Source: a virus. Taken from it: a stretch of DNA of 25,025 bases. Position 1 is the first letter of the stretch; each line of letters starts with the position of its first letter. Location of the stretch: the IMG/VR virus record IMGVR_UViG_3300028596_000062, positions 1 to 25,025 of that record. The stretch is one strand, 5' to 3'. Positions 2,749 through 14,426 of the stretch are shown one piece after another. The notes under the pieces are model-generated. The model saw only the letters and a list, made by a program, of their open reading frames with translations. It ran no database searches and was not told the origin of the DNA. The position numbers and the translations under genes were made by a program.

Positions 2749-3428
2749 TGTTGGACTGGACTAGATTGACGCCCGCAGTCGACCGTGCTGCGAGCATCGC
2801 ATCATCCAAGTTCCCTGCACACCACGACGTCTCCGACATCAAGCAGGAGATCTGGGTGTGGATCATGGAAAACAAGAAGACCGTTCTCAGAATCCTCTCT
2901 GACGAGAACAGCACGGTTGCAGCACTGGACAGCCTTCTCTTGAAGGCTGCCAACACGTACCTCAAGACAGAGGACGCTGCGGTCTACGGCTATCAGGAGG
3001 AAGATCGGTTCTTCTACTCGGTCGAGCTGATCAAGAGCATCCTTGAAGTGATCTTCCGACACGAAGACTGGCAGTCCTTCGCTACCGCGCTGGATGCCAT
3101 GCCTAAGGCTAAGGCTGAGCCTGCTACCGCTGGCAACAACCTTGCAGCGTACGCCGACGTCAAGTCGGCGGTTGAGAAGCTGCCGGAAGACTACTACAAC
3201 CTCATCGTGTGGCGCTACAAGTACCAGTACACGTTCACCATGATCGGCGAGCAGACCGGCACTACCAAGCAGAGCGTCTCGGAACGTCACGAGCGGGCCG
3301 TCAAGGCCATTCAGACACTGCTTGGGCAGACGCCCCTCACTAAGTTCCGCGAGGGGTACGACGGGCGCACAGAGGCCCGTGGTAACGCTTCTGGTCAAGC
3401 TCGGATCGAGCGAGACTACGAAGGCTGA
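2748..3428 (+). CDS. Sigma-70-like transcription factor
   Basis: This 226-residue protein has an N-terminal segment resembling sigma region 2 (HDVSDIKQEIWVWIMENKK, about residues 26-44). A clear region 4-type helix-turn-helix covers about residues 140-193: VEKLPEDYYNLIVWRY, then TMIGEQTGTTKQSVSERHERAVK as the DNA-reading part. The linker and a polar tail after residue 195 are poorly conserved in appearance. It probably directs host RNA polymerase to phage promoters, though an anti-sigma or a DNA-binding protein with only region 4 is possible. Translation is coupled to the phosphoesterase by TGATG. A strong terminator follows about 135 bases later. Confidence 0.72.
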   Translation: MLDWTRLTPAVDRAASIASSKFPAHHDVSDIKQEIWVWIMENKKTVLRILSDENSTVAALDSLLLKAANTYLKTEDAAVYGYQEEDRFFYSVELIKSILEVIFRHEDWQSFATALDAMPKAKAEPATAGNNLAAYADVKSAVEKLPEDYYNLIVWRYKYQYTFTMIGEQTGTTKQSVSERHERAVKAIQTLLGQTPLTKFREGYDGRTEARGNASGQARIERDYEG

Positions 3429-3430
3429 GT

Positions 3431-3560
3431 GGGTAGGAGTGGAGTCGAACCACTCTGCGCGGGCCGCCGCCCGATTAGCCACCATGGTTAACGGGAATCG
3501 AACCCGACAACAGGACCACCTGACGCTGGAATCGAACCAGCTTACGCTACCAATCTACCC
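3431..3560 (-). ncRNA. Segment with three T-loop hairpins (tRNA-derived or tRNA-like)
   Basis: Read on the minus strand, this 130-nt gap has three hairpins with canonical T-loops: stem GCTGG with TTCGATT (3525-3541), stem CGGG with TTCGATT (3492-3506) and stem GAGTGG with TTCGACT (3437-3455). The ends pair as GGGTAG (3560-3555) with CTACCC (3436-3431), directly stacked on the last T-arm. The 5' part contains TTGGTAGCG, a typical D-loop string. I could not fold any part into a full tRNA with an anticodon arm. It may be decayed or fused tRNA genes, or a larger relative of the 40-nt elements found further right. Transcription on this strand would need readthrough past the hairpin at 3565-3586. 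Confidence 0.5.
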
Positions 3561-5498: not shown

Positions 5499-5642
5499 TC
5501 ACACAAGCATGTCCTGCCTGATGCTAAGGACGTCTGCGCAGGTTACCGAGCAGACGACAGCATCCTGGACTCGGGTGAAGCATATCACGCACTTCTCACC
5601 CTCGTCAACCCACTGGTCTTCTGAGTCCCAGTACTCATCCAT
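5499..5642 (-). CDS. Four-cysteine mini-protein, probable zinc ribbon (47 aa)
   Basis: A 47-codon frame begins at ATG 5642, 15 bases after the stop of the kinase-like gene, with AGGAAAGG upstream at loose spacing. The N-terminus is acidic (MDEYWDSEDQWVDEGEK), followed by CVIC-x9-CSVTC (Cys18, 21, 31, 35). Two cysteine pairs at this distance fit a zinc-binding knuckle. Such small phage proteins often bind host partners, but nothing here shows which. Confidence 0.6.
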   Translation of the reverse strand: MDEYWDSEDQWVDEGEKCVICFTRVQDAVVCSVTCADVLSIRQDMLV

Positions 5643-5657
5643 GATGTTGCGCCTTTC

Positions 5658-6170
5658 CTAGCAGCCGAAGTCGACGGGGACCAACAGGCCGTCCGCGTCC
5701 ACTACAGCGTTCTCGTCGTGCAGGTCGGCCAGCCTCAGACGCGTCTCGCAGATCTGGAGACGCTCGTACAGCAGGTCGCGCTCGTTCCAGTTCTGGGTGG
5801 TGTAGTCGATCAGGAGGTCGCCGGGAATGAACTCCACCGCGACCACCGTTTCGACATCGTCACCATCCGGGACGTCGTACGAGTCGAACTTGGGGAACCG
5901 GCAGCCTTCCGGCGCACCGATCTCCCATGCACGGGTGAGGTTGTTCACCTCACCCCGCTGCTGACGCTCCGACCAGTCGTTGTGACCGACCTTGTAGGCG
6001 ACCCCCTCAGGGGAGAGCCACACAGAGCGTGCACAGCCCGATCCAACAAACTCCCAACCCTCGGGAGCGTGCTCGTCTTCCACGCATGACGGCTTACCGT
6101 ACTTGGATCCGTGCTGACGGACCCAGTGGTAGATGGTGAGAGCGTCGTGGTGGTTGCCAAGATCGTGCAT
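5658..6170 (-). CDS. Kinase-like protein ending at the DFG motif (170 aa)
   Basis: The start is ATG 6170, with AGGAG inside the end of the previous gene. Motifs follow protein kinase / aminoglycoside phosphotransferase order: a glycine-rich turn VGSGCARSVW (42-51), the lysine of VAYK (Lys60), a glutamate helix GEVNNLTRA (Glu74), a hinge-like VAVEFIPG (110-117), then ADLHDENAVV (Asp149, His151, Asn154) and VDFG (Asp167). The chain stops one residue after DFG, so the activation segment and C-lobe helices of normal kinases (over 250 residues) are absent. It may be a minimal kinase, a nucleotide-binding pseudoenzyme or a half of a complex. A paralogue is encoded at 6467-6964. Confidence 0.7.
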   Translation of the reverse strand: MHDLGNHHDALTIYHWVRQHGSKYGKPSCVEDEHAPEGWEFVGSGCARSVWLSPEGVAYKVGHNDWSERQQRGEVNNLTRAWEIGAPEGCRFPKFDSYDVPDGDDVETVVAVEFIPGDLLIDYTTQNWNERDLLYERLQICETRLRLADLHDENAVVDADGLLVPVDFGC

Positions 6171-6171
6171 G

Positions 6172-6345
6172 TCAGTTCTCCTCATTCTCGGATCGCTGGG
6201 CTTCGAGGCGGCCCTGAACCTTGATTAGCAGGACAGAGAGCGCGGCAAGCGCTCTCTGCTCTACCTCCCAAAGGCTGGGCTTCTCGGCGTAGAACTTACG
6301 CTCTGACGCCAGCTCCTCTTCCAGGATCCTGAAGAACTCGTCCAT
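6172..6345 (-). CDS. Small helical protein between the two kinase-like genes (57 aa)
   Basis: The ATG at 6345 follows a strong GGAGG. The product is nearly all charged helix (MDEFFRILEEELASERKF, then VEQRALAALSVLLIKVQGRL), compatible with a coiled-coil or a binding partner. Its stop lies one base before the start codon of the kinase-like gene, so the two are coupled. No family recognised. Confidence 0.7.
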   Translation of the reverse strand: MDEFFRILEEELASERKFYAEKPSLWEVEQRALAALSVLLIKVQGRLEAQRSENEEN

Positions 6346-6365
6346 GATTCCTCCTGTAAGGATCA

Positions 6366-6378
6366 CCCCGCTTTGGGG
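6366..6378 (-). promoter_or_regulatory. Short hairpin after T-loop element A
   Basis: CCCC and GGGG pair around a five-base loop, between element A and the ribosome-binding site of the 57-aa gene; the hairpin ends 20 bases before the ATG at 6345. Confidence 0.4.
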
Positions 6379-6383
6379 CTAGC

Positions 6384-6423
6384 GCCTGCCCAGGACTCGA
6401 ACCTGGGTGTATGCCATTCAGGC
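6384..6423 (-). ncRNA. T-loop tRNA-like element, copy A
   Basis: Minus strand order: outer GCCTG, spacer AATGGCATACA, stem CCCAGG, loop TTCGAGT, stem CCTGGG, outer CAGGC. The total is exactly 40 nt, as in the five other copies. Flanking GGGCTAGC and GCTAGCCC can extend the outer stem, with two unpaired bases. It lies 43 bases after the stop at 6467 and upstream of the 57-aa and kinase-like genes. It resembles acceptor plus T-arm of a tRNA with the D and anticodon arms replaced by the spacer. Confidence 0.75.
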
Positions 6424-6466
6424 TAGCCCAACGGCGCAGCCGTCGGCCTTTGCGTAGCTAGGAGCT

Positions 6467-6964
6467 TCAACCCCCAAGGTCGATCGGGACAAGCTCCTCG
6501 GTGGTCTGGTCGACCGCGAGGTTAGCCCCATGTAGGTCCCAGATGCCCTGAAGGACGTTCCGGATCTTGCGAAGGTTCTCCCAGTGCCTGGAGCCCTTCT
6601 CGTCGTACCGAGAGTACTCTTTCAGCAAGTGAGTAAAGTACTCCATCGCCATGACGTTGTCCTGATCCTCGAAGGCGTAGAACGCCCAGCGGGGGAAGCG
6701 GCAACCCTTGGGCATCCGCTTGAAGCGGTACAGCCGCAGGTTGTTATACTCACCCTCGTTGGTCTGCCCGCCGGTGTAGTTACGGTCCCGCTCGATCTTG
6801 TACACCACGCCAGACTCGACGTGGAGATAAACCGAACGGTAGCACCCCGAAGAGAGGTACTTCCAGCCCTCGGGGACCTTGTTCGGGGTCGCCCAGGACG
6901 CGTTCTGAGTCGTCTCCCGGTACCAGTCACGGATGAAGCGAGCGTCAACCTCATTGCCGATCAT
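6467..6964 (-). CDS. Kinase-like protein ending at the DLG motif (165 aa)
   Basis: This is a paralogue of the protein at 5658-6170. It has PEGWKYLSSGCYRSVY (glycine turn near 39-46), VVYK (Lys56), GEYNNLRL (Glu72), PKGCRFPRW, a hinge-like VMAMEYF, then WDLHGANLAV (Asp143, His145, Asn148) and PIDLGG (Asp162) at the very end. Catalytic-loop residues are kept, but there is no C-lobe after DLG. The start at ATG 6964 has AGGAG at good spacing; an upstream extension of 11 codons has none. It is preceded by element B. Substrate unknown; a truncated APH-like fold is the best reading. Confidence 0.68.
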   Translation of the reverse strand: MIGNEVDARFIRDWYRETTQNASWATPNKVPEGWKYLSSGCYRSVYLHVESGVVYKIERDRNYTGGQTNEGEYNNLRLYRFKRMPKGCRFPRWAFYAFEDQDNVMAMEYFTHLLKEYSRYDEKGSRHWENLRKIRNVLQGIWDLHGANLAVDQTTEELVPIDLGG

Positions 6965-6988
6965 GTCAACTCCTGTGAGTGAGCCAGA

Positions 6989-7007
6989 GGGCGCCACCTC
7001 GGCGCCC
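6989..7007 (-). promoter_or_regulatory. Hairpin after T-loop element B
   Basis: GGGCGCC and GGCGCCC form a perfect 7-bp stem with a five-base loop, starting a few bases after element B and ending 24 bases before ATG 6964. Its sequence differs from the hairpins after the other elements, but its position is the same. Confidence 0.55.
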
Positions 7008-7012
7008 CCAGT

Positions 7013-7052
7013 GGGTGTCTACGGCTCGAACGTAGATGCCTGCCAGTCACCC
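7013..7052 (-). ncRNA. T-loop tRNA-like element, copy B
   Basis: Outer GGGTG, spacer ACTGGCAGGCA, stem TCTACG, loop TTCGAGC, stem CGTAGA, outer CACCC. The inner stem differs at most positions from copies A and C, yet pairs perfectly. It starts 7 bases after the stop of the 117-aa gene. Confidence 0.75.
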
Positions 7053-7059
7053 TTGTTGC

Positions 7060-7451: not shown

Positions 7452-7454
7452 AGT

Positions 7455-7494
7455 GCCAGCCCAGGACTCGAACCTGGGTGTATGCCATCCTGGC
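7455..7494 (-). ncRNA. T-loop tRNA-like element, copy C
   Basis: Outer GCCAG, spacer GATGGCATACA, stem CCCAGG, loop TTCGAGT, stem CCTGGG, outer CTGGC. It is nearly identical to copy A, except that the outer pair changed from GCCTG/CAGGC to GCCAG/CTGGC, a compensated change. It begins 10 bases after the stop at 7505. Confidence 0.78.
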
Positions 7495-7504
7495 TACCTA
7501 AACC

Positions 7505-7976: not shown

Positions 7977-7979
7977 AGT

Positions 7980-8019
7980 GGGTGGCTAGGACTCGAACCT
8001 AGCTGTCTGCCGGTCACCC
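7980..8019 (-). ncRNA. T-loop tRNA-like element, copy D
   Basis: Outer GGGTG, spacer ACCGGCAGACA, stem GCTAGG, loop TTCGAGT, stem CCTAGC, outer CACCC. It starts 7 bases after the stop of the 32-residue peptide gene. A TTGACA at 8025-8020 just before it might act as a -35 box, with TAGGTT in the element 18 bases later, so this copy may overlap a promoter. Confidence 0.76.
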
Positions 8020-8026
8020 TGTCAAG

Positions 8027-8374: not shown

Positions 8375-8377
8375 AGC

Positions 8378-8417
8378 GGGTGTCAGGGACTCGAACCCTG
8401 ATGTGTGCCGCTCACCC
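8378..8417 (-). ncRNA. T-loop tRNA-like element, copy E
   Basis: Outer GGGTG, spacer AGCGGCACACA, stem TCAGGG, loop TTCGAGT, stem CCCTGA, outer CACCC. It lies 95 bases after the stop at 8513, with a separate hairpin (GGGCC/GGCCC, 8421-8438) just before it whose loop GATAAGTA echoes the class II leader at 4432-4512. Confidence 0.76.
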
Positions 8418-8506
8418 TTTGGGCCTACTTATCGGCCCTGACTCACCCAGCTAGGACAGCGCCTCTAGCTAGGGGAGACGCGCTTAGCGACATAGTCGCA
8501 CGCCTC

Positions 8507-8923: not shown

Positions 8924-8928
8924 CAGTG

Positions 8929-8968
8929 CCCTGCTAGGGACTCGCACCCTAGTGTCTGCTGGTCAGGG
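8929..8968 (-). ncRNA. T-loop tRNA-like element, copy F
   Basis: Outer CCCTG (extendable by one G-C pair), spacer ACCAGCAGACA, stem CTAGGG, loop TGCGAGT, stem CCCTAG, outer CAGGG. This copy differs from the others at loop position 2 (T to G) and at spacer position 4 (G to A). In tRNA the corresponding residues, T-loop 55 and D-loop G18, contact each other. It begins 9 bases after the stop at 8978. Confidence 0.75.
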
Positions 8969-8977
8969 CTGTGGTAC

Positions 8978-9383: not shown

Positions 9384-9440
9384 TGAGTCAGACTGGACTC
9401 ATCAGTACGGGCTGTTACCCGCAGACGCCCCGAAGGGCGT
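9384..9440 (-). promoter_or_regulatory. Two hairpins between the 51-aa and 129-aa genes
   Basis: ACGCCC and GGGCGT (9425-9440) enclose a TTCG tetraloop on the minus strand just after the 51-aa gene stop. TGAGTC and GACTCA (9384-9401) pair around a six-base loop 16 bases before ATG 9367. No T-loop element is present in this gap. Confidence 0.5.
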
Positions 9441-9447
9441 TTCGTCC

Positions 9448-13647: not shown

Positions 13648-14426
13648 TGCAGTACGTATCCCGTAAGACTCTCGGCTGGCCCGCTTCGGCGGCGCCCAGC
13701 CAGACAGACCCCGTCAAGGGGGTGAAGATCCACTACGAAGGTACCTCGGTCCCAGAGGTCGAGCACTCCAAGTGCGACGACCGATGGAAGGCTATCCGAG
13801 CATCCCATCTGGCGAACACCGCCGAGGGCTACTCCGATGTCGCCTACAACTGGGCGGTGTGTAACCACGGTGTGATCTTCGAGGGTCGTGGTCTAGGCAA
13901 GCGGACCGGAGCCAACGGCTCCCAGCCGCTGAACCGGACCCACTACGCCATCCTCTGGATGGGCGGGACGAAGGGTGTCGTTACCCCCTCGTCTGCGGCT
14001 GTGACTGCTATCAAGGAGGTGATCCAGTATCTCCGTGATCACGGCACGGGTAAGGAGATCAAGGGGCACAGAGACGGTTACGCGACCGCCTGCCCTGGAG
14101 ACGCTCTTTACGCTCTCGTGAAGGCTGGCAAGCTGGAGCCGACCAAGGCTCCGGTCACCGCTAAGCCGAAGCCGGTGTACGCCCCCTTCCCGGGCGCGTC
14201 GTACTTCAAGCTGGGACGTCGGTCTGCTCTGATCACAGAGCTGGGCAAGGCTCTCGTCCGGGCTGGCTACAAGGGTTACAAGCAGGGCCCTGGCCCCACG
14301 TTCACCGTGGCGGACAAGAGGGCTGTCACCTGGTTCCAGAAGAAGCAGGGATGGAGCGGCTCGGGTGCTGATGGCATCCCCGGCCCCGAAACGTGGAAGC
14401 GCCTCAAGGTGGCGCAGCCCAAGTGA
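13647..14426 (+). CDS. Endolysin: N-acetylmuramoyl-L-alanine amidase with peptidoglycan-binding domain
   Basis: This 259-residue enzyme cleaves the amide bond between N-acetylmuramic acid and the stem peptide. The N-terminal Amidase_2/PGRP domain (about 1-155) has the zinc ligands His29 (KIHYEGT), His141 and Cys149 (GHRDGYATACPGD), and Tyr67 of SDVAYNW. A Pro/Lys linker (TKAPVTAKPKPVYAP) leads to a PG_binding_1-type domain (about 185-258: VADKRAVTWFQKKQGW, then GIPGPETWKRL). The TGATG overlap with terminase favours the ATG at 13647; an ATG at 13632 is an alternative. No signal peptide is seen, so export needs a holin or it acts from the virion. Its place between terminase and portal is unusual. 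Confidence 0.9.
   Translation: MQYVSRKTLGWPASAAPSQTDPVKGVKIHYEGTSVPEVEHSKCDDRWKAIRASHLANTAEGYSDVAYNWAVCNHGVIFEGRGLGKRTGANGSQPLNRTHYAILWMGGTKGVVTPSSAAVTAIKEVIQYLRDHGTGKEIKGHRDGYATACPGDALYALVKAGKLEPTKAPVTAKPKPVYAPFPGASYFKLGRRSALITELGKALVRAGYKGYKQGPGPTFTVADKRAVTWFQKKQGWSGSGADGIPGPETWKRLKVAQPK

What the first reader, a model, noticed from the sequence alone, without database searches (positions are those of the whole stretch)
5658..6964. Pair of paralogous mini-kinases that stop at DFG/DLG
Both proteins keep the glycine turn, the lysine, the helix glutamate, the DLHxxN catalytic loop and the DFG aspartate, but end within two to three residues of it. Normal kinases and APH enzymes need helices after this point. 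Two copies with the same end argue against a frameshift. They may be a compact active fold, a dimer completed by a partner such as the 57-aa protein between them, or ATP-binding pseudoenzymes acting on the host.
Basis: partly seen in the sequence, partly recalled or inferred. Interest (0 to 1): 0.62.

Follow-up and report, generated by a model that had tools for sequence, protein, structure and literature searches.

The report
Phage kinases that end at DFG
A Streptomyces-type phage carries two related proteins that keep every catalytic residue of a protein kinase but lack the second half of the enzyme; the same abrupt end is kept throughout a whole phage protein family, so it is a real design whose activity and target are still untested.

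Summary
Both window proteins (170 and 165 aa; 35% identical) keep the G-loop, Lys, αC Glu, DxxxxN loop and DFG Asp, and stop three residues after that Asp. They are not broken genes. They belong to phrog_28435, a phage-only family (unknown function) of Stanwilliamsviridae Streptomyces phages and uncultured, mostly ~45-kb relatives. In 52 distinct aligned members the five catalytic residues are invariant; 35 of 52 end exactly 3 residues past the Asp, none more than 22. One distant relative, left out (L049), has about 34. dN/dS is 0.07-0.41. AlphaFold2 gives confident monomer kinase folds (pLDDT 96); OspG, itself a kinase of subdomains I-VII, is the best PDB match for P0001. Most likely these are genuine subdomain I-VII kinases whose substrate-binding half comes from the target or a partner. 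The proposed 57-aa partner occurs in only 7 of 19 kinase-bearing contigs; a zinc-finger-like protein just downstream in 16 of 19. An obligate paralogue heterodimer is not general: single-copy genomes exist. Activity is unproven. Side finding: a 43-nt tRNA-elbow-like RNA element, absent from Rfam searches, recurs in this operon's gaps.

The parts
5658..6170 (-). Mini-kinase P0001 (170 aa), P1 type; K60 at 5991-5993, E74 at 5949-5951, D149 at 5724-5726, N154 at 5709-5711, DFG D167 at 5670-5672, stop 5658-5660
6467..6964 (-). Mini-kinase P0002 (165 aa), P2 type; K56, E72, D143, N148, DLG D162 at 6479-6481, stop 6467-6469
6172..6345 (-). 57-aa small protein P0003 between the two; relatives in 7 of 19 kinase-bearing contigs, usually just upstream of the P1-type gene
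5499..5642 (-). 47-aa CxxC..CSxxC protein just downstream of P0001 (treble-clef-like; relatives match Pfam DUF2116 weakly); next to the kinase in 16 of 19 kinase-bearing contigs
6382..6424 (-). 43-nt tRNA-elbow-like RNA element in the gap between P0002 and P0003 (operon context)
7011..7053 (-). 43-nt tRNA-elbow-like RNA element 46 nt upstream of the P0002 start (operon context)

Best explanation
The two genes encode complete members of a phage family of minimal kinases made of subdomains I-VII only (N-lobe, hinge, alphaE, catalytic loop, beta7-beta8 and the DFG Asp), with an added conserved N-terminal segment (IGNxxDAxxIxxW). Shown: the fold by prediction, the invariant catalytic set, the conserved hard stop, purifying selection, and the phage-only range in the collections searched. 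Inferred: they bind Mg-ATP and transfer phosphate (or another ATP-derived group) onto a host component during takeover, as T7 gp0.7 is known to do (recalled). Because the activation segment and helices alphaF-alphaI are absent, the acceptor site has to be built by something else: the target protein itself or a small phage partner, by analogy with OspG, which depends on ubiquitin. The CxxC..CSxxC protein encoded next door is the best candidate partner in the ~45-kb phages.
For: Invariant K60/E74/D149/N154/D167 in 52 of 52 distinct sequences; 35 of 52 end 3 residues past the Asp, maximum 22. AlphaFold2 pLDDT 96.1 and 95.5, pTM 0.90 each. Foldseek PDB best hit for P0001 is OspG 4bvu, E 1.2e-5, with PknB, NleH1 and Rio2 also listed; VIA-align Z up to 11.6 (rmsd 3.1, 135 aligned), the model's last residue being the end of the alignment. 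P0002 best hits CK2, p38, APH(2''), E about 1e-5. Profile A3 against PDB: DYRK2 E 0.0037, NleH1 E 0.016, most rows kinases, ending at the DFG position. dN/dS 0.07-0.41. Family only in phages: phrog_28435 24 of 24; no confirmed relative in genome contigs. OspG: homology over residues 24-160, subdomains I-VII only, ubiquitin-dependent (PMC3585378, passages). Zinc-finger-like neighbour in 16 of 19 contigs.
Against: No activity, binding or complex was tested. SteC fragments ending about 11-13 residues past its DGD Asp (D364) were inactive (PMC13395416, passages and section 6), so a kinase cut here may not work alone. OspG keeps a 36-residue C-terminal part needed for ubiquitin binding that these proteins lack. 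Single-protein Pfam matches are weak (0 for P0001 and P0002). The zinc-finger-like neighbour was not found in Stanwilliamsviridae or in L048/L049, and 10 of its 16 carriers trained the profile that found it. Host target and timing of expression are inferred from genome position only.
Confidence: 0.55

Rival explanations
1. Nucleotide-binding pseudokinases: they bind ATP or ADP and act as scaffolds, decoys or inhibitors of host kinases without catalysis.
For: No activation segment or alphaF-alphaI; SteC truncated shortly after its DFG-equivalent was inactive (PMC13395416); HRD His and Arg positions are not conserved.
Against: Catalytic D149, N154 and D167 are as invariant as the ATP-binding K60 and E74 (52 of 52); pure ATP binding would not be expected to hold the catalytic Asp in every member.
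Confidence: 0.22
2. Kinase-fold enzyme with other chemistry or a small-molecule acceptor (AMP transfer, glutamylation, phosphorylation of a metabolite).
For: The residue two after the catalytic Asp is His in 39 of 52 (D-x-H-x-x-N), as recalled for APH and ABC1/UbiB; Pfam ABC1 matches 4 of 24 members, best E 4.8e-5; UbiB 3 of 36, best E 2.4e-4; the P0002 model matches APH(2'').
Against: APH enzymes build their acceptor site after the DFG Asp (recalled), and that part is missing here; no signature residue for AMP transfer or glutamylation was tested.
Confidence: 0.13
3. The two paralogues form an obligate heterodimer, each completing the other.
For: Two copies in 10 of 18 small-phage records; P1-type sequences form a well supported clade (100/98) with one member per record.
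Against: Blueeyedbeauty and TunaTartare (complete) have one copy each; three ~45-kb records (G005, G016, G018) have one.
Confidence: 0.07
4. Truncated, decaying or frameshifted genes, or a sequencing artefact.
For: Known kinases and APHs continue well past DFG.
Against: Same end in independent phage genomes and contigs; no aligned family member with a C-lobe; downstream genes differ between phages; dN/dS well below 1.
Confidence: 0.02

Closest known systems
OspG / NleH1 / NleH2 (type III effector kinases)
   Same: Kinase homology limited to subdomains I-VII; OspG homology spans residues 24-160 (PMC3585378) and the phage model aligns to OspG 26-160; OspG is the best Foldseek hit of P0001.
   Different: OspG has 36 more residues (161-196) that take part in ubiquitin binding; the phage proteins have about 3. 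Common-family membership is not shown (NleH1 profile E 0.016).
SteC (minimal effector kinase)
   Different: SteC keeps alphaEF, alphaF and alphaG and needs them: its 210-375 and 200-377 fragments were inactive.
phrog_28435 (PHROGs, unknown function); some members annotated kinase or serine/threonine kinase in GenBank
   Same: All 24 members of A1 match it, best E 8.7e-107. The window proteins belong here.
   Different: Function and the missing C-lobe are not described in the records seen.
APH, ABC1/UbiB, RIO2 and PknB kinases
   Same: Fold; D-x-H-x-x-N catalytic loop type (APH/ABC1, recalled); weak profile matches.
   Different: All have a C-terminal helical part after DFG (recalled).
T7 gp0.7 (phrog_15752)
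   Same: Phage kinase of host takeover (PHROGs description); weak match, best E 0.0029, 2 of 24 members.
   Different: Profile of 260 positions; the match of P0002 is limited to the G-loop region.

Membership tests
phrog_28435 | Profile match | tested here: met
   24 of 24 members of A1 match; P0001 1.3e-11, P0002 1.1e-14
Protein kinase-like fold | N-lobe, hinge and catalytic core fold | tested here: met
   Models at pLDDT 96.1 and 95.5 match hundreds of kinase chains
Protein kinase-like fold | Lys, alphaC Glu, catalytic Asp, Asn, DFG Asp | tested here: met
   52 of 52 sequences
Eukaryotic-type (Hanks) protein kinases | Activation segment and helices alphaF-alphaI after DFG | tested here: not met
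   2-22 residues after the Asp in 52 of 52; about 34 in the left-out L049
Eukaryotic-type (Hanks) protein kinases | HRD motif and GxGxxG loop | tested here: not met
   HRD His position is L/V/I/M/S, Arg position variable; third Gly is Arg in 52 of 52
OspG/NleH kinases | Kinase homology limited to subdomains I-VII | tested here: met
   definition from PMC3585378
OspG/NleH kinases | C-terminal ubiquitin-binding stretch after residue 160 | tested here: not met
   Absent
OspG/NleH kinases | Sequence homology | tested here: inconclusive
   NleH1 E 0.016 with profile A3
APH phosphotransferases | Pfam APH match above cut-off and C-terminal acceptor-binding helices | tested here: not met
   Pfam APH 2 of 24, best E 0.075; no residues for C-terminal helices
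ABC1/UbiB kinases | Profile match and KxGQ motif | tested here: inconclusive
   4 of 24 members, best E 4.8e-5; KxGQ (recalled) not tested
Split kinase (as composite HipA) | C-lobe encoded by a separate adjacent gene | tested here: inconclusive
   No adjacent gene recognised as a C-lobe; a remote or novel one is not excluded
Active phosphotransferase | ATP binding and phosphate transfer | not testable with these tools
   needs an assay

The most novel reading that the evidence does not exclude
A two-part kinase: the catalytic half is a protein that ends at DFG, and the missing half is supplied by a separately encoded tiny zinc-binding subunit. In the ~45-kb phages a CxxC..CSxxC protein is encoded right behind the kinase (16 of 19 contigs), while the Stanwilliamsviridae kinases instead carry 3-5 cysteines between hinge and catalytic loop (0-2 in the ~45-kb phage members; L048 is an exception with 5), as if the zinc module were in cis in one lineage and in trans in the other. 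It would be an active kinase without alphaF, against the usual view of alphaF as the scaffold of the core.
Probability: 0.18. Interest if true: 0.78.

Novelty: new variant of a known kind. Interest (0 to 1): 0.56.

Why it matters
If these proteins are active, the minimum for kinase catalysis would be subdomains I-VII plus whatever the substrate or partner brings, and the role given to alphaF and the activation segment could be tested with a natural 165-residue enzyme. As the genes lie in phage regions of small, probably early genes, their targets would also point to processes that phages take over in Streptomyces. Cultured phages (Gilson, Wakanda, Blueeyedbeauty, TunaTartare) carry the family, so tests are practical.

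Tried and rejected
Pfam on the window proteins alone: 0 families. phmmer of P0001 against PDB: none; only profiles reached kinases. Genome-contig scan with A2: 10 stretches matched a pattern, none confirmed. FlowerPower and WRightOn (cultured relatives by terminase) have no family member above noise with the 52-sequence profile (best E 4 among their frames; WRightOn read from base 14,000 on). The 47-aa protein: no tblastn match in cultured phages at E up to 5. A complex prediction was not attempted (single chains only). PADLOC: MkoA 1 of 36 at 1.2e-7, others weaker; not pursued. Paper searches on phage kinases gave nothing specific (listings only).

Rows left out: A1 used 24 of 30 distinct sequences found (near-copies and two unannotated ones left out; their C-termini, seen, are also short). 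A3 left out L026, the second copy of L027, L049 and the copies of the window itself. L049 is the exception to the short end: if its RDVVG Asp is the DFG Asp, about 34 residues follow. Three more members found (L122 twice, L124) end 2, 14 and 3 residues after the Asp and are not in the 52. RNA element: 75 T-arm hits, 58 with GGCA, 55 distinct, 50 aligned.

Full report
Observation. The window is a 25,025-bp linear virus record. On its minus strand, 5658-6170 and 6467-6964 encode proteins of 170 and 165 residues, 35% identical, with a 57-aa gene between them (6172-6345). Both have a kinase-type glycine loop (GxGxxR), the VxYK lysine, an alphaC glutamate, D-L-H-x-x-N and D-[FL]-G, and both stop three residues after that Asp.

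Is it real? Relatives were collected from cultured phages (tblastn: 36 and 38 records, all Streptomyces phages) and from IMG/VR. The cultured ones with a family name lie in Stanwilliamsviridae: Gilsonvirus, Annadreamyvirus, Faustvirus, Wakandavirus and Wilnyevirus among those opened; a few are annotated kinase, most hypothetical. Fifty-two distinct sequences were aligned. G45, R48, K60, E74, P93, D149, N154, D167 and, in the N-terminal part, G5, A10 and P36 are invariant in 52 of 52. Thirty-five of 52 end exactly three residues after D167, six end five after, and the longest tail has 22. A distant relative outside the 52 (L049) has about 34. No aligned member has a C-lobe. dN/dS for 12 estimable close pairs of 13 was 0.07-0.41. 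The hard stop at DxG is therefore a kept property of a functioning family, not a frameshift.

What fold? With 36 window and IMG/VR sequences, AlphaFold2 gave P0001 pLDDT 96.1, pTM 0.90 and P0002 pLDDT 95.5, pTM 0.90. Both show the kinase order: N-terminal helix, beta1-beta3, alphaC, beta4-beta5, alphaE, beta7, beta8, end (assignment of names is mine). Foldseek against PDB puts OspG first for P0001 (E 1.2e-5), with PknB, NleH1 and Rio2 also listed, and CK2, p38 and APH(2'') first for P0002. VIA-align reaches Z 11.6 (rmsd 3.1, 135 aligned) with the last model residue at the end of the alignment, for example PknB residue 159 and OspG residue 160. Profiles of the family hit PDB kinases in register and end at the DFG position (best E 0.0037, DYRK2). 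In HRD terms the motif is [LVI]-x-D in most members; in 39 of 52 the residue two after the catalytic Asp is His, the pattern I recall for APH and ABC1/UbiB enzymes, which also appear as weak profile matches.

Who has it, and with what neighbours? PHROG phrog_28435 matches 24 of 24 members of A1. A scan of genome contigs confirmed no relative, so in what was searched it is phage-only. Copy number: 3, 2, 1, 1, 2 in the five named phage records searched whole; in 18 IMG/VR records, two in 10, one in 7, and three matches at two places in one. In the tree the P1-type genes form a clade with 100/98 support, one per record, so the P1-type lineage is old; P2-type sequences are less well resolved. The terminase of the window is 63-65% identical to those of Beephvirinae Streptomyces phages (FlowerPower, WRightOn), in which the family was not found. 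In the ~45-kb phages a small CxxC..CSxxC protein (window 5499-5642) follows the kinase: profile hits in 16 of 19 distinct kinase-bearing contigs, 10 of which trained the profile, plus a decayed copy in L039; relatives match Pfam DUF2116, probable treble clef, only weakly (best E 3.4e-4, below cut-off). The 57-aa protein has counterparts in 7 of 19, four of which trained its profile. In Stanwilliamsviridae the kinase is followed by a 40-49-aa basic peptide of a common pattern in 11 of 13 loci read, and the kinases themselves carry 3-5 cysteines between hinge and catalytic loop, against 0-2 in the ~45-kb phages; L048 is an exception with 5.

Mechanism. What is shown is a compact, conserved kinase fold of subdomains I-VII with a complete catalytic set. 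What is inferred is ATP-dependent transfer. The activation segment, P+1 loop and alphaF-alphaI, which in other kinases hold the acceptor, are absent. The best precedent is OspG: the passages read (PMC3585378) describe homology to subdomains I-VII only, a further 36-residue C-terminal stretch, and activation by ubiquitin. The best counter-example is SteC: fragments ending 11-13 residues after its DGD Asp were inactive (PMC13395416). I therefore expect that the phage proteins need a partner or their substrate to complete the site. The zinc-finger-like neighbour is the most consistent candidate where it exists; the 57-aa protein is not general; an obligate dimer of the two paralogues is contradicted as a rule by single-copy genomes. 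The invariance of D149, N154 and D167 argues against a mere ATP-binding pseudoenzyme. The genes sit among small, probably early genes, so a host-takeover role is likely but inferred.

Known or new? As a kind it is known: subdomain I-VII kinases exist among secreted effectors. As a variant it looks new: a phage family that ends at DFG itself. Paper searches listed nothing on phage kinases ending at DFG; only listings were read except for the papers named (passages of PMC13395416, PMC3585378, PMC7943720 and PMC9758233; one section of the first).

Separate side finding. In the gaps of the same operon lies a 43-nt RNA element: 6382-6424, 7011-7053, 7453-7495, 7978-8020, 8376-8418 and a weaker 8926-8970, all minus strand. 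Fifty aligned copies from the window and IMG/VR phages (5 of 55 distinct left out) form 14 pairs with 700 of 700 standard pairs and 198 double changes. Five T-arm pairs were part of the search pattern; the outer stem, the one-pair loop and the two-pair pseudoknot to the T-loop were not. It looks like a tRNA elbow (GG and T-loop TTCGAGN) without an anticodon arm. In the window each copy stands some 36-47 nt before a start codon and is followed at once by T[GA]G and a hairpin. One upstream gap of the operon instead has a hammerhead type II match with intact core letters, 31.7 bits against a gathering score of 37. Rfam gave no match to the element at E up to 1 in four sources. One copy used as a query matches 215 cultured phage records, 139 of them over at least 80% of the query and 113 Streptomyces phages; some of the shorter matches are probably ordinary tRNA T-arms; most listed rows have no annotated feature there. 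I read it as an mRNA processing or protection signal; this is untested. Two paper searches (listings only) showed no description of it.

Noticed in passing
window 6382-6424, 7011-7053, 7453-7495, 7978-8020, 8376-8418, 8926-8970 (all -): 43-nt structured RNA element: 5-bp outer stem, one-pair loop with GGCA, 6-bp T-arm with TTCGAGN loop, two-pair pseudoknot; 700 of 700 cells paired in 50 copies, no Rfam match at E<=1, sits in gaps upstream of genes, many cultured actinophages have it. tRNA-elbow-like; function unknown, perhaps mRNA processing.
   Followed up: partly
window 9387-9447 (-): Hammerhead type II-like ribozyme (31.7 bits, gathering 37) with CTGATGA and CGAAAC core, in a gap of the same operon where other gaps have the 43-nt element.
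   Followed up: partly
L078 8453-14450 (IMGVR_UViG_3300025875_000028): Twelve copies of the 43-nt RNA element within about 6 kb of a 57-kb phage contig; the mini-kinase profile found no member in the stretch held.
   Followed up: no
L049 2360-2938 and record G020 6567-7010: Divergent relative of the mini-kinases with a Cys-rich tail of about 34 residues; the second place in the same record gives two partial matches.
   Followed up: no
L018 (Karp MZ820095.1) 2776-3435: Annotation probably wrong: an opposite-strand gene (263) and a shortened gene (264) are drawn where one 195-aa mini-kinase frame runs.
   Followed up: no
L009 7114-7254, L010 5512-5640, L012 7441-7587 and others: A 40-49-aa highly basic peptide follows the mini-kinase in 11 of 13 Stanwilliamsviridae loci read; a possible substrate or partner.
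   Followed up: no
window 3438-3454 and 3525-3541 (-): Two T-arm-like hairpins that look like remnants of tRNA genes; ARAGORN finds no tRNA in the window, while cultured relatives FlowerPower and WRightOn carry about 20 tRNA genes.
   Followed up: no
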